DNA from: Billgrantia endophytica
GTDB lineage: Bacteria > Pseudomonadota > Gammaproteobacteria > Pseudomonadales > Halomonadaceae
Direction of reading: 5' to 3'
Length of the DNA stretch: 64,000 bases
Assembly: GCF_002879615.1 (NCBI RefSeq)
Contig: NZ_PNRF01000037.1
Span: 124,001-188,000 of the forward strand
Each line of letters opens with the position of its first letter. Position 1 is the first letter of the stretch. The notes beneath the pieces were generated by a model, which worked only from the letters and a program-made list of their open reading frames with translations, was not told the DNA's origin and made no database searches. The position numbers and the translations under genes are program-made. Shown here piece by piece: positions 52,327-56,413 of the stretch.

Positions 52327-53154
52327 ATGCGCTCGCCCCGTCCCGCTCGCCATGATGCTCTTCGCCGCCGGCTGTTGCGTAGCCTGGTTGCCACCCTGAC
52401 GGGTATCGGCCTGTTCGGCCTGACCCTGCCGGCCCTGGCAGACGGGCCCTGGCAGCGCCTGGAGGCCACCCAGGCGGTACTGGGCGGCGCCACCCCCAGT
52501 ACCAGGGGTCTGGTTCTCGACCTCCCCCACGTGTCGGAAGACGGTTCGGCCGTTGCCCTGACGGTTGGTTTCGACGGCGAACTGGAGGAGAACGATTACA
52601 TCGAGCGGATCGACCTGTTTGCGGTCGACAACCCCTCTCCCGAGATAGCGACGTTCCACTTCACACCCATGAATGGCAAGCCGGAGGTCTCCACCCGAGT
52701 GAGGCTAAACGAAACCCAGGATGTGATTGCCATCGCCACCAGCCATCAAGGGGAGCGTTTCGCCACGGCAAGAGAGGTGCGCATCACCGTCAGCGGCTGC
52801 CTGATGCGCAACGGGAATGACCAGCCGGAGCCGCTATCCAGCCCGCGTGTCAGCGTCCCGTCCAGCTTCTCCGTCGGGGAACCGGAGGAGATTCGCACCC
52901 TCATCAACCACCCCATGGAAACCGGGCTGCGCGAAGGACCGGATGGCGAAACCCTGCCGCGCCATATCATCGAGCGCTTCACCGTGAGCGTGAACGGCGA
53001 AACCGCCTTCGAGGCCGAACTGCACCAGTCGGTCTCCGCCAACCCCTACCTGCGTTTCCATCTTGCCCCCGAGAACAGCGGCGAGGCACTCTTCGAATGG
53101 TTCGACGACAGCGGGGAGAGCGCCCGGCATGAGGTGGAGCTTTCCGTTGGCTGA
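52327..53154 (+). CDS. Fused SoxY-SoxZ sulfur carrier
   Basis: 275 residues. Signal peptide to about residue 39. The SoxY-like half (about 40-160) ends in VRITVSGC, with Cys158 in the place of the carrier cysteine of SoxY (normally near the protein's end as GGCGG); the SoxZ half (about 172-275) begins RVSVPSSFSVGEPEEIRTLINHPMETGLR. Here the carrier Cys is internal, before a linker to SoxZ. SoxYZ carries sulfur intermediates during thiosulfate oxidation; fused versions occur outside full sox operons. It follows the YeeE gene by 20 bp. No soxAX, soxB or soxCD are in the window. Confidence 0.85.
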   Translation: MRSPRPARHDALRRRLLRSLVATLTGIGLFGLTLPALADGPWQRLEATQAVLGGATPSTRGLVLDLPHVSEDGSAVALTVGFDGELEENDYIERIDLFAVDNPSPEIATFHFTPMNGKPEVSTRVRLNETQDVIAIATSHQGERFATAREVRITVSGCLMRNGNDQPEPLSSPRVSVPSSFSVGEPEEIRTLINHPMETGLREGPDGETLPRHIIERFTVSVNGETAFEAELHQSVSANPYLRFHLAPENSGEALFEWFDDSGESARHEVELSVG

Positions 53155-53159
53155 TGCTT

Positions 53160-53438
53160 TCAAGTCGTCACCCTGCCCGGCACCGCTTGCTCATCCAGGC
53201 GGATATCCTCCGCTATCGCACCTTTGTTCAGTCGGATCACGCGCTGGGCAAAGGCAATGGTTTCATTACGGTGGGCGATAGTGATGCGCGTCATGGGAAG
53301 TCCGCCCAGCAACTGCACCACATGCTGTTCGCTATGCAGATCAAGATGACTGGTTGCCTCATCCAGCGCAAGAATGCGCGGCTTCTTGTAAAGCGCCCGC
53401 GCCAGCAGCACGCGCTGCTTCTGTCCGCCGGGTCGCAC
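53160..53438 (-). pseudogene. C-terminal remnant of a peptide-exporting ABC transporter
   Basis: About 92 codons remain: the ABC signature end (PGGQKQRVLLARALYKKPR), Walker B (ILALDEATSHLD) and the H-loop region (MTRITIAHRNETIAFAQRVI). The leader peptidase domain, membrane domain and Walker A are missing, so it cannot function. The usual Ser-Gly-Gly start of the signature is replaced at the fusion point with the JmjC-like gene, near 53438-53448. By context it was the CvaB-like exporter for the microcin. It ends 5 bp from the SoxYZ stop. Confidence 0.82.
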
Positions 53439-53439
53439 C

Positions 53440-53730
53440 CTTGCGCATATAATCGTAGATCACCGGCTTGATATAACGATATTCCAGTCGTCCCACATTG
53501 ACGTAGGATTCGAGATACTCCTCTTTTGGCACCTCATAGCCATTCATCAACTTGAAACTACGATCAGCAGCATCCGCCCGCTCGTAAATTTCGCTGATCT
53601 GGCCCCAGGAGATATCTATCCCCTGGATAGCTTTCCTGAACAGGCAAGGCTTCTTGTAGAGGTATTCAGAAGAAAATTCCTTCTTATCAATCCCAAAGTC
53701 AACATCTAATTTGTTTTCTATAAAATTCAC
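53440..53730 (-). pseudogene. Truncated JmjC/cupin-like protein gene, fused to the ABC remnant
   Basis: From a GTG at 53730 (AAGGG about 8 nt upstream) the frame reads MNFIENKLDVDFGIDKKEF..., with SEYLYKKPCLFRKAI and YRYIKPVIYDYMRKGA, like the N-terminal part of JmjC/Cupin_8 oxygenase-like proteins, sometimes found near peptide-modifying genes. The iron-binding core is lost: after about 97 codons the sequence enters ABC-transporter DNA in a foreign frame, giving a 123-codon chimera that ends near 53359. Family assignment is moderate because only the N-terminus remains. Confidence 0.6.
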
Positions 53731-53818
53731 TATTTAAACCCTTGTTCTTTAGCAGATTAACACATAAAAAAACATACCAAGCAGTCATGAAAAGCCAACT
53801 TTTCTTCTTTCCATACAT
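53699..53818 (-). CDS. Possible small membrane ORF between immunity-like and JmjC-like genes
   Basis: 39 codons from ATG 53818 (MYGKKKSWLF...) with one hydrophobic segment and a basic tail, or 48 codons from a GTG at 53845. It overlaps the JmjC-like start by 32 bp. The aromatic, basic start faintly recalls lasso-B2-type protein N-termini, but nothing longer is present. It may be a relic or chance. Confidence 0.25.
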   Translation of the reverse strand: MYGKKKSWLFMTAWYVFLCVNLLKNKGLNSEFYRKQIRC

Positions 53819-53870
53819 ATTAAGAGTGGCATCACGGAAAAACACTCTCCCAAGCCGAATTTCTATGACT

Positions 53871-54068
53871 TTATTTTTCTGACTTATGGTCTTTTATCAT
53901 CCTATCAACAAGAAACATTCCCACCAAGGATGAGACAGCACTTGCATTTCTTTGATAGGCATCACCACTTATTTCAAAGTATAATGTTGAAACTGCACAA
54001 ATCAAAGTCAAGGCAGTAAAAAAACAAATCATAAAAAACCTTAAAGCATCAATTTTTTCCGACATCAT
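53871..54068 (-). CDS. Putative microcin immunity protein (two membrane segments)
   Basis: 65 residues from ATG 54068 (AGG about 5 nt upstream; GTG 54074 and ATG 54065 are alternatives). Two hydrophobic segments: about 9-32 (FFMICFFTALTLICAVSTLYF) and about 42-56, then a basic-acidic tail (RMIKDHKSEK). Size, topology and position 74 bp after the microcin gene fit an immunity protein, but no homologue is recognised. AT-rich codon use unlike the surrounding chromosome. It seems intact, which is expected if immunity outlasts production. Confidence 0.5.
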   Translation of the reverse strand: MMSEKIDALRFFMICFFTALTLICAVSTLYFEISGDAYQRNASAVSSLVGMFLVDRMIKDHKSEK

Positions 54069-54142
54069 CAACACCTATTTACTTGGTTAAAAACACCTAA
54101 CAACCAAGTAGCACTATAGAGTGCTACTTGGCCCCATATTAA

Positions 54143-54448
54143 TTAATAGCTGGTTCCATCCCCATAGTCAGTTCCATCAAATACTTGGCTAACAGCATAT
54201 CCTCCTAGGCCGGCTCCAGCTCCACCACCCAAAAACCTCCCTATATATCGACCGGCCACCACTCCAGTAACCGCTCCCGCTGGACCAAGCGCCGACCCTA
54301 TCGCACCTCCCACATAACCTCCTACAGCACTTCCAGCGACTTGCCCCGCCTTTGCTGCTACCGCCCCTCCCACTCCTACTGCCGCAGCTTGAGCAGTACT
54401 ATCACCACCCCCGACCAAACTCAACTATTGAACACTAAGCTCGCGCAC
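54143..54448 (-). pseudogene. Colicin-V-like double-glycine microcin precursor with stop codon in the leader
   Basis: GTG at 54448 has AAGGAG 6 nt upstream and reads MRELSVQ, then TAG (54427-54425), then LSLVGGG followed by DSTAQAAA.... Aligned to the double-glycine leader, the residues are Leu(-12), stop(-8), Leu(-7), Val(-4), Gly(-2), Gly(-1): the stop is exactly at the conserved Glu(-8), one base from GAG. The mature part is about 86 residues, rich in Gly/Ala with many GxxxG steps (VGGYVGGAIGSALG), a membrane-inserting pattern like colicin V, ending DGTDYGDGTSY. A TTG at 54424 could start a leader-truncated product. Without suppression no exportable precursor is made. Confidence 0.78.
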
Positions 54449-54708
54449 TGTTTTCTCCTTTTATAAATTTAATAGCAGTAACATATAGACTCACCACGCC
54501 GATCCCCGAGAAAAGAAGACCATATGTAATAGATGAGTAGCTCTTACCAAAATACTCAGGAACAATCATCAAAAACGCTCCCCCTACCACTATAAGCCCA
54601 CCCCCGGCGGAAACACTCTTGCAAATATCTTTTGCTTTTGGTTTATAACAAAAAATCTTTTCATCACTTTCTCTCCAAGATATTATACATAAAAATCACT
54701 TTACTCAC
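54435..54708 (-). pseudogene. Frameshifted small two-helix membrane protein gene before the microcin gene
   Basis: GTG 54708 with AGGGGAG 5 nt upstream reads MSKVIFMYNI, then meets a stop in frame. Shifting one base near 54685-54690 gives a long open frame: WRESDEKIFCYKPKAKD..., two hydrophobic segments (GGGLIVVGGAFLMIV and TYGLLFSGIGVVSLYVTAI) and an end KGENSARA, with the stop overlapping the microcin start by 14 nt. The coupled spacing and good ribosome binding site suggest a once-real gene, perhaps another immunity protein. Family unknown. Confidence 0.5.
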
Positions 54709-54772
54709 AGACACTCCCCTTAAGCCTTACCCAATCTTAAAGTATTTAACAACCCCCATAAAAACAATAACT

Positions 54773-55645
54773 TCATTCGGTAAAAGTCTCCCGCTTTCCT
54801 ATCACGGAATAAACTGGTTCCAATGCCCACTCATAGAGTCGGCGCCGATCCTGCACGATATCGGCCTCCAACAGCATGCCGGTCTGCAAAGGCTGCGGTG
54901 CGCCATAGACATTGATAAATTGCGCATCCAGTTCCACCGTGATCCGGTAGTAGAGATCGGCGCTTTCCGACGTTTCCGTCAGGGCGCTGGCGATATGCAC
55001 AGGAAGCTCTTGGAGTGCATAAGGCGTCATCACCAGTTGCGTGACCGTTCCCCGGGTCATGCCGAAACGCTGGTAAGGATAGGCGGCGTGGCGCATCAGC
55101 TCTTGCTGGCGCTGTAGTTGCTGTTCGGCGAGGGCAGCACGGCGCTGTAAAAGCCGCAGCTCACCAGTGAAGCCTTCGTGTTCCTCATCGATAGTGCGTA
55201 GTCGGTTGTCCAGCATGCGCGACTGGCCTTCCAGACGCTCATCGGCCAAGAGGCGGTTGCGCTCCAGCAGTAGAAGTCGCTGGTTGAGTTGTTTGGCGAT
55301 CAACTGCTCGGTGCCGCCCGCACCGCTGAAGCGCTCACCGGAGATAGTGAATAGTGTGTCACCAGACTCGACCGCTTGCCCCTCGATCACCTCGATGCTG
55401 GAAAGCACACCCGCCGTATGAGCCGTCAGGCGCAGTACGCCCTGCTCAGGCATGAGCAACCCAACCACAGTGGCCTTGCGGGTATAAGTACCGAAGTAAC
55501 CAAAGGCCGCCACCAAGGCAGTGAACAGCAATGCCAACATGGCGGCTACCGTGTAACCCCAAGGCTGGTGAATCTGGACACTGCCGAGCTTTCTCGACAC
55601 CCCGACCCTCGCCGCCGTTCGAAACAGACCCGATGGCTCGCCCAT
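54773..55645 (-). pseudogene. HlyD/CvaA-type bacteriocin secretion protein with internal deletion
   Basis: 290 codons from ATG 55645 (GGGAGG 5 nt upstream; the frame extends to 55687). Basic cytoplasmic start, one TM (about 28-50), lipoyl part (RKATVVGLLMPEQGVLRLTAHTAGVLSSIEVIEGQAVESGDTLF) and coiled coil (about 115-190). It then jumps at about residue 185 (QELMR, near 55090) directly to AAYPYQRFGMTRGTVTQLV, which in full-length relatives follows a second coiled helix, lipoyl half and beta-barrel start. Roughly 110-130 residues seem missing in frame (relatives about 400-430). The C-terminus ending ALEPVYSVIGKRE is normal. Probably non-functional. Confidence 0.75.
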
Positions 55646-55984
55646 CACCGCCTCCCTTGCGTACATCCACCTGTCAGAGCCAGGCAATCTTCATGTTCTT
55701 TTGGTATCTTTTATACACAAACCTTAAAGATAATCAATCTCAATAGCGTTTAAAAATCAAATTGAGGAAAATGTCGCGATGGACGAATGACTAAACGAGG
55801 TGGGGCTTGTTGCCCTGGGAGGAGGATGTTCTGACATCCCGCATAGGCAAGGCATGTAAGCCAGACATGTGGAAAAGGCTCGCGATGCCAGTGAACTAGA
55901 GGTTTGCTGAGGCCAGCCCCCATGACGCAAATGCCCCGGCCGCTTACACGACCGGGGCGCCTGCGTTACGTGGGGTGCTGCCAA
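55646..55984. other. 339-bp intergenic region between microcin remnants and uspA
   Basis: The left half (about 55688-55780) is AT-rich and probably holds the old promoter of the secretion genes. No ORF here has a recognisable product. A hairpin at 55933-55958 is given separately as the uspA terminator. Confidence 0.55.
55933..55958 (-). terminator. Hairpin after uspA
   Basis: gccccgg (55933-55939) and ccggggc (55952-55958) pair around a 12-base loop, which may pair further by two bases. It lies 27 bp after the uspA stop, with ATTTG following on the minus strand. A likely but weak-tailed terminator of the TAXI-TRAP operon. Confidence 0.5.
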
Positions 55985-56413
55985 TCAACGCACGATCATG
56001 ACCGACATCTTCGAGTGATGAACCACGTGTTCGGCGTTGGGTCCGAGCACGTAGTCGGCGAACTTGCGCTTGTTGTGCGACGCCATCACGATCAGGTCGA
56101 CATCAAGTTTCTTTGCCATCTTGATGATCGCCTCCCAGGGCGAGCCATCGACGATCACGGACTGCACCTTGATGTCGTCCGGCACGTGCTCGGCAATGAA
56201 GCGATGCTGCGCTTCCGACAGCGCCTCATGCGCCTTTTTCGAGAAATCGCGCGGGAAGTAGGAGCCCACCAGCGGCATGTGGTAGTCCGGCAGAACCGTC
56301 ACCACATGCAGCGAGGCACCGAAGGTACGGCACAGGGTCAATGCCACGGGTAGCGCCTTGCCCCAGGAGCTCTCCTCGTTGAGATCCACCGACAGCAGAA
56401 TCTTCTTGTACAT
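55985..56413 (-). CDS. Universal stress protein (UspA family), TRAP-associated
   Basis: 142 residues, single Usp domain: KKILLSVDLNEESSWGKALPVAL at the start, VDGSPWEAIIKMAKKLDVDLIVMASHNKRK and LGPNAEHVVHHSKMSVMIVR at the end. The ATP-binding pattern G-x2-G-x9-G-S/T is changed (SHNKRKFADYVLGPNAE), so nucleotide binding is uncertain. In H. elongata the Usp protein TeaD belongs to the TRAP operon teaABCD and modulates uptake; this gene, 12 bp after a TRAP permease gene, may do the same. GAGGAGGGGAG precedes ATG 56413. Confidence 0.9.
   Translation of the reverse strand: MYKKILLSVDLNEESSWGKALPVALTLCRTFGASLHVVTVLPDYHMPLVGSYFPRDFSKKAHEALSEAQHRFIAEHVPDDIKVQSVIVDGSPWEAIIKMAKKLDVDLIVMASHNKRKFADYVLGPNAEHVVHHSKMSVMIVR

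What the first reader, a model, noticed from the sequence alone, without database searches (positions are those of the whole stretch)
54143..54448. Microcin precursor with a stop codon exactly at the conserved leader Glu(-8)
Directly seen: GTG start with a good ribosome binding site, MRELSVQ, TAG, LSLVGGG, then a Gly/Ala-rich GxxxG core. Known: double-glycine leaders have Leu(-12), Glu(-8), Leu(-7), Val(-4), Gly-Gly. The TAG takes position -8 and is one base from GAG. Inference: a once active colicin-V-like microcin was silenced by one substitution, or is expressed only by amber suppression or from the downstream TTG.
Basis: partly seen in the sequence, partly recalled or inferred. Interest (0 to 1): 0.75.

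Follow-up and report, generated by a model that had tools for sequence, protein, structure and literature searches.

The report
Decayed microcin cluster with oxygenase remnant
A bacterium carries the wreck of a gene cluster for a small antibacterial peptide, silenced by a stop codon and several deletions, and its intact relatives in other bacteria pair a conserved peptide tail with an oxygen-using enzyme that may decorate it.

Summary
The minus-strand frame 54448-54143 starts GTG after AGGAG, has TAG at codon 8, and runs on open through a Gly/Ala-rich core. Six of 6 relatives of this core that keep a leader have Glu there: a broken double-glycine leader. But the stop is one of at least four lesions: HlyD lacks about 138 residues, an upstream membrane protein aligns only from residue 90, and a 2.77-kb deletion joins the start of a JmjC oxygenase to the end of the exporter. 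No other good exporter and no amber-suppressor tRNA was found. The cluster is a low-GC insert, absent from 10 of 10 informative congeners. It is a dead microcin locus.

The more interesting result is its family: precursors beside this oxygenase end in G-x-x-Y (14 of 18 leader ORFs, against 0 of 31 around oxygenase-free exporters), across 11 core groups without mutual matches. I infer that the oxygenase modifies this tail; a published study instead reads a homologous cupin gene as immunity.

The parts
54143..54448 (-). Microcin precursor frame: GTG start, TAG at codon 8, Gly/Ala-rich core, G-x-x-Y tail, TAA
   Evidence: homologues
54455..54459 (-). Shine-Dalgarno AGGAG, 6 bases before GTG
54425..54427 (-). 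In-frame TAG at leader position -8
   Evidence: Glu in 6 of 6 leader-bearing relatives of this core
54146..54175 (-). C-terminal tail GTDYGDGTSY, the signature of precursors beside the JmjC oxygenase
53871..54074 (-). 67-aa membrane protein, open, in the position of a cognate immunity gene; weakly like the V. olivaria one (29%, E 0.004)
   Evidence: membrane character by eye, immunity role is inference
54435..54590 (-). Remnant of the 140-150-aa membrane protein before the precursor; homology runs 54620-54438 and covers residues 90-150 only
   Evidence: E 2e-11 to the V. sedimenti protein
54773..55687 (-). HlyD/CvaA-type adaptor, 304 aa, lacking about 138 internal residues
53432..53730 (-). 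Start of the JmjC oxygenase, to residue 93 of the relatives; the HxD...H iron site is gone
53160..53431 (-). End of the C39 peptidase/ABC exporter, from about residue 611 of 699
53429..53432 (-). Deletion junction joining oxygenase and exporter; about 2.77 kb missing relative to V. sedimenti
53155..55984 (.). Whole insert between two conserved genes (52327-53154 and usp 55985-56413), which are adjacent in 10 of 10 informative congeners

Best explanation
This is a dead class II microcin cluster, acquired as a low-GC insert, that decayed by several separate events. In intact relatives the precursor has a 14-15-residue double-glycine leader, a JmjC oxygenase is encoded beside it, and a C39-peptidase ABC exporter with a HlyD adaptor removes the leader and exports the peptide. 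In the window the stop cuts translation after 7 residues, the adaptor is internally deleted, and oxygenase and exporter are fused stumps, so no mature peptide can be made or sent out. The 67-aa membrane gene may survive as an orphan immunity gene. Shown by sequence: the stop, its place in the leader, the deletions, the insert. Inferred: the biochemical roles, that the locus is silent, and that the intact state came first.
For: Stop in an otherwise intact leader; Glu in 6 of 6 leader-bearing relatives of the core. HlyD 304 aa against 415 and 431 in two relatives, one gap of 138 columns. Oxygenase aligns only to residue 93 and exporter only from about residue 611 of 699; junction at 53429-53432. 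Upstream protein aligns only from residue 90. No other good C39 exporter in the own genome: one match at 3.3e-5, against 1.6e-39, 5.5e-34 and 3.5e-33 in the three same-family genomes with intact clusters and 66 places at 1e-27 or better in 390 genomes of the order; its domain shows no catalytic Cys or His by eye. No CTA anticodon among 52 typed tRNAs. Empty site in 10 of 10 informative congeners.
Against: Apart from the stop, the 101-codon frame and its tail look undamaged and HlyD is still open after an in-frame deletion, so decay is recent or something is still selected. One assembly only: the stop could be a sequencing error. An exporter on unassembled DNA cannot be excluded (50 contigs).
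Confidence: 0.88

Rival explanations
1. The microcin is still made by read-through of the TAG (a suppressor tRNA or natural leakiness), giving a little full precursor.
For: The frame after the stop is open and keeps its tail; leakiness of this stop context was not tested.
Against: 52 typed tRNAs, no CTA anticodon (one weak match of 34.8 bits untyped); exporter and HlyD broken in the same cluster; no other good C39 exporter.
Confidence: 0.03
2. Translation restarts at TTG 54424 right after the stop and makes a leaderless core that stays in the cell.
For: TTG abuts the stop, where re-initiation is possible; 93-codon frame with coding-like GC by position.
Against: No Shine-Dalgarno before the TTG by eye; leader present in 6 relatives. 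The one leaderless relative, P0123, begins inside the core, matches the V. sedimenti core and looks like a gene-calling fragment.
Confidence: 0.05
3. Sequencing or assembly error at codon 8: the precursor is intact in the cell.
For: Only one assembly was seen.
Against: The other lesions are deletions of about 0.4 and 2.77 kb that a base-call error does not explain; the cluster would still lack an exporter.
Confidence: 0.04
4. For the family, not the window: the JmjC/cupin protein is the immunity protein, not a peptide-modifying enzyme.
For: In A. baumannii ATCC 17978 the cupin-like gene mcaB alone protected a cluster-deleted strain from Mcc17978 (PMC10333792, passages read).
Against: Iron-site residues H137, D139, H202 are invariant in 33 of 33 chosen proteins and the best matches among solved structures are hydroxylases; separate small membrane proteins, the usual kind of immunity gene, lie beside precursors; the tail tracks the enzyme across core groups, which immunity to the core would not predict. 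Both roles could hold.
Confidence: 0.25

Closest known systems
Mcc17978 system, Acinetobacter baumannii (mcaABCD; PMC10333792)
   Same: Leader precursor, cupin-like gene, HlyD, C39 ABC exporter in one locus (paper passages). An A. baumannii plasmid has oxygenase, HlyD, exporter and a 61-aa precursor ending GNDYCEDGGNY (L052).
   Different: Functional; gene order differs from the window's; the authors read the cupin as immunity. I did not see the Mcc17978 peptide sequence or compare its cupin with this oxygenase, so that link rests on species, gene set and gene order.
McbC system, Moraxella catarrhalis pLQ510 (mcbABCI; PMC2761928)
   Same: HlyD, C39 exporter, double-glycine bacteriocin, immunity gene (passages); an oxygenase homologue lies on the plasmid.
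   Different: McbC has no G-x-x-Y tail, and there the oxygenase is annotated as two frames of 252 and 102 aa (the second judged its C-terminal part by eye). The paper does not use the word cupin.
Microcin V (PF17508) and class II microcins
   Same: Leader and Gly-rich core; Pfam MccV matches below the curated cut-off for precursors of V. sedimenti (E 9e-6), V. olivaria (1e-4) and P0001 (2.9e-5).
   Different: No Pfam match for the window core; a JmjC gene in MccV clusters is not known to me (recalled, not searched).
Class IIb siderophore-microcins (E492, H47, M)
   Same: A conserved C-terminal stretch apart from the core (recalled); uptake through catechol receptors, as reported for Mcc17978 (PMC10333792, passages).
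   Different: Class IIb tails are Ser-rich and carry an enterobactin derivative added by other enzymes (recalled).
BipG, JmjC ornithine hydroxylase of biphenomycin (PMC12707348)
   Same: JmjC enzyme hydroxylating a ribosomal precursor peptide (passages).
   Different: Other substrate residue and peptide class; sequence relation not tested.

Membership tests
Class II microcin (double-glycine leader) | Leader with Leu(-12), Glu(-8), Leu/Met(-7), Val(-4), Gly-Gly | tested here: met
   All positions but -8, which is a stop in the window; motif in relatives
Class II microcin (double-glycine leader) | Uninterrupted precursor frame | tested here: not met
   TAG at codon 8: the window gene is a pseudogene of the family, not a working member
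Class II microcin (double-glycine leader) | Dedicated C39 peptidase/ABC exporter and HlyD adaptor | tested here: not met
   Only remnants in the window; present in relatives' loci
Class II microcin (double-glycine leader) | Antibacterial activity of the secreted peptide | not testable with these tools
   No bench data for this peptide
Oxygenase-associated G-x-x-Y-tail microcins (group described here) | C-terminal G-x-x-Y | tested here: met
   Window ends GTDYGDGTSY; 14 of 18 leader ORFs beside the oxygenase, 0 of 31 in oxygenase-free clusters
Oxygenase-associated G-x-x-Y-tail microcins (group described here) | JmjC_2 (PF08007) oxygenase gene in the cluster | tested here: met
   N-terminal remnant 53432-53730; whole in V. 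sedimenti, E 1e-27 to PF08007. The remnant itself has no Pfam match
Class IIb siderophore-microcins | Ser-rich C-terminal tail | tested here: not met
   Window tail has one Ser in ten residues
Class IIb siderophore-microcins | Siderophore-linking enzymes in the cluster | not tested
   No search was made for them

The most novel reading that the evidence does not exclude
The window preserves a fossil of a post-translationally modified class II microcin group in which a ROX-type JmjC oxygenase hydroxylates the invariant Tyr of the C-terminal G-x-x-Y repeats (to a catechol), so that the peptide makes its own iron-binding, siderophore-like tail from ribosomal residues and enters prey through catechol receptors such as Fiu/PiuA.
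Probability: 0.2. Interest if true: 0.85.

Novelty: new variant of a known kind. Interest (0 to 1): 0.5.

Why it matters
Class II microcins are described as carrying little or no modification except the siderophore of class IIb (PMC10333792, passages). A tail that tracks a JmjC oxygenase across 11 core groups without mutual matches, in Gamma- and Betaproteobacteria, suggests a further modified group with a directly testable reaction, and offers another reading of the cupin-like gene of Mcc17978, now taken as immunity. The window itself shows how such a cluster dies: stop in the leader, stumps of enzyme and exporter, a possible immunity gene left over.

Tried and rejected
Amber suppression: no CTA anticodon in the 52 of 53 tRNA matches of the own genome that ARAGORN typed (31 loci given, which cover all 53 by my reading). 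Rescue by another exporter: only a weak C39 match without catalytic residues by eye (family scans that included pieces of that gene failed on coordinates). Fur boxes (consensus recalled; some gene starts are only frame starts): the best 19-base match before hlyD is 14/19 in the window, V. olivaria and G634 (background fraction 0.023, 0.017, 0.05) but 9-13/19 in the seven other hlyD genes scanned, and 10-13/19 before the precursors; suggestive at most. Asp/Asn hydroxylation as the obligate reaction: the residue before the last Tyr varies (S 5, N 5, D 5, G 2, P 1, A 1 of 19 tails), so Gly and Tyr are the only fixed positions; these 19 were picked because they have the tail. Relatives of P0001 in viral contigs: none. 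In one search the matches beyond G158, G232, G223 and the window were set aside by eye as glycine-rich composition. Structure prediction of the oxygenase never started (machine full). No selection test on the core: no DNA of a near relative was at hand.

Limits of the tail count. The 16 oxygenase loci were collected by oxygenase homology (13, two plasmids, one), the 64 control loci by C39 homology: five congeners and 59 of the 66 places (left out: the oxygenase-bearing G634, two second matches within a cluster already taken, and G306, G335, G276, G379). Neither set is phylogenetically even. The oxygenase loci gave 18 leader ORFs in 15 loci; L041 was missed by the pattern but ends GDGCDY, and L049 was counted tailless although a second frame there ends GTSYSDGTGY. 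Of the controls L187 was dropped for lack of a strong exporter match; leader ORFs were seen in 22 loci, and several of the 31 are probably spurious. The four tailless ORFs beside the oxygenase are L043 (ends GSNYCSDK), a second short peptide in L045, a 50-codon frame in L049, and McbC in L053. L054 (cluster at a record edge) and the remaining plasmid hits were not scanned into the count.

Full report
Observation. The frame exists as described: AGGAG, six bases, GTG at 54448, six codons, TAG at 54427-54425, TTG, and 93 codons to TAA at 54145-54143. The core is not a chance frame: 0.33% of 20,000 Markov sequences stay open that long, and GC by codon position is 0.73/0.63/0.34.

Is the stop in a real leader? 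A search of 5.8 billion proteins with the 93-residue core gave one protein at E <= 1e-3, P0001, 62% identical, beginning MRNLTINELELVGGGDS. A profile search with four relatives gave 6 proteins; four carry the leader (P0001, P0122, P0124 and, starting a few residues later, P0125); P0124 and P0125 have changed or short cores; P0123 starts inside the core and P0126 looks unrelated. Whole-genome searches: with the window core, 1 of 90 genomes of the genus matches, the window's own; with P0001, 45 of 275 genomes of the family match at E <= 1e-3, most by glycine-rich composition. The relatives by leader and cluster are G158 (contig length and peptide of Oceanospirillum maris DSM 6286, L045), G232 (Vreelandella sedimenti, L038) and, with another core, G223 (V. 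olivaria, L039). Glu stands at codon 8 in 6 of 6 leader-bearing relatives of this core (four proteins, G158, G232). Among the 18 leader ORFs of the wider group I read Glu in 14, Asp in 3, Asn in 1.

The cluster. Intact relatives show HlyD, in two cases an M16 peptidase, a 140-150-aa membrane protein, precursor, a small membrane protein, a JmjC_2/cupin oxygenase of about 382 aa and a C39/ABC exporter of about 699 aa. The window keeps the order but not the genes: HlyD 304 aa with one gap of 138 alignment columns; upstream membrane protein only from residue 90; oxygenase to residue 93, then out of frame; exporter from about residue 611. The oxygenase-exporter junction lies at 53429-53432 and removes about 2.77 kb relative to V. 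sedimenti. The 67-aa membrane gene is open. With the stop, that is at least four lesions. The single C39 match elsewhere in the genome is weak and lacks the catalytic residues by eye, so nothing obvious could replace the exporter.

Origin. GC falls to 36-52% over 53.4-55.0 kb, against 60-70% on one side and 53-65% on the other. The flanking genes, 52327-53154 (SoxYZ-like by eye) and the universal stress protein, are 84-115 bases apart in 10 of 10 congeners where both could be seen (L133-L141, L143; L142 lies at a contig edge; loci were fetched for 11 of the 19 other matching genomes). The cluster is an insert. In V. olivaria an intact cluster of the group sits on the other side of the same TAXI/TRAP/usp block.

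Suppression. 53 tRNA matches; ARAGORN types 52, none with CTA. The draft may lack some tRNAs.

The family. The oxygenase search in GTDB contigs gave 13 loci (Gamma- and Betaproteobacteria, classes recalled), 434 proteins (120 listed), 115 plasmid records, 15 of them covering 80% or more and some of these only about 22-26% identical, and 1 of 390 genomes of the order at E <= 1e-50. Most precursors beside it end in G-x-x-Y: 14 of 18 leader ORFs in 12 of 15 loci, against 0 of 31 in 0 of 22 loci around C39 exporters without the oxygenase (Fisher p 4.5e-9 by ORF, 2.5e-7 by locus; not corrected for relatedness; limits under Tried and rejected). Among 19 tail-bearing peptides chosen as such, 17 have two copies. 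With leader and last 13 residues removed, 17 cores fall into 11 groups with no BLAST match at E <= 1e-3 between groups; all are Gly-rich or small, so distant kinship is not excluded. One tailless case, McbC, is on a plasmid whose oxygenase is in two frames. The oxygenase keeps H137, D139, H202 in 33 of 33 chosen proteins. Its best matches among solved structures are ribosomal L16 arginine hydroxylase and NO66 (E about 3e-8), then C2orf60, MINA and FIH; the 27 hits also include a cupin glucose-6-phosphate isomerase (E 8e-5). Inference: it hydroxylates the tail; Gly and Tyr are the only invariant residues of the last copy (19 of 19), so Tyr is my first candidate. Mcc17978, whose locus has the same gene set, uses the catechol transporter Fiu or PiuA and is induced by low iron (PMC10333792, passages), which fits a catechol tail but does not show it. 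The same paper found that the cupin gene alone protects against the microcin, which speaks for immunity. Mcc1229 of E. coli also needs a cupin-domain gene and enters by CirA (PMC8853679, passages); its relation to this oxygenase was not tested.

In print. Searches: microcin + JmjC (3 papers), class II microcin + double-glycine + Halomonas (0), bacteriocin + Moraxella catarrhalis + McbC (3), microcin + A. baumannii + type I secretion + double-glycine (3), microcin + cupin (14), two of bacteriocin, JmjC, peptidase C39 (24, 20 listed), microcin + tyrosine + hydroxyl + catechol + siderophore receptor (2), Mcc17978 (2), bacteriocin + JmjC (2). Their listings and the passages that I opened in four papers (PMC10333792, PMC8853679, PMC2761928, PMC12707348) show no statement of the tail-oxygenase link; no paper was read whole, and the library holds open-licence papers only.

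Verdict. The window holds an ordinary fate, a decayed bacteriocin cluster. The value lies in the group it belongs to.

Noticed in passing
L043 228-491; P0124; L049 8139-8291: Other decayed-looking precursors: Marinomonas polaris keeps the leader but the core changes and loses the tail (frameshift by eye); M. shanghaiensis has a leader ORF of only 50 codons.
   Followed up: partly
L035 539-13448: V. olivaria has an intact cluster beside the same TAXI/TRAP/usp block that borders the decayed one in the window, but on the other side.
   Followed up: partly
L034 473-3205; L035 9443-12169: A 908-910-aa M16-type peptidase frame (Pfam match shown for the V. sedimenti one) lies between HlyD and the precursor in the two Vreelandella clusters; role unknown.
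   Followed up: no
hits H5, H6 (A. baumannii plasmids): An ISAba10 transposase is annotated within the span of the oxygenase match, which is in two pieces.
   Followed up: no
L046 10374-12403: Neisseria dentiae has two tail-bearing precursors and a third short tail-bearing frame in one cluster.
   Followed up: no
L127-L131: C39/HlyD clusters without oxygenase in five congeners carry leader peptides of two other kinds (ending LPELP/LPDLP or DGLSPL), on the strand opposite to the exporter.
   Followed up: partly
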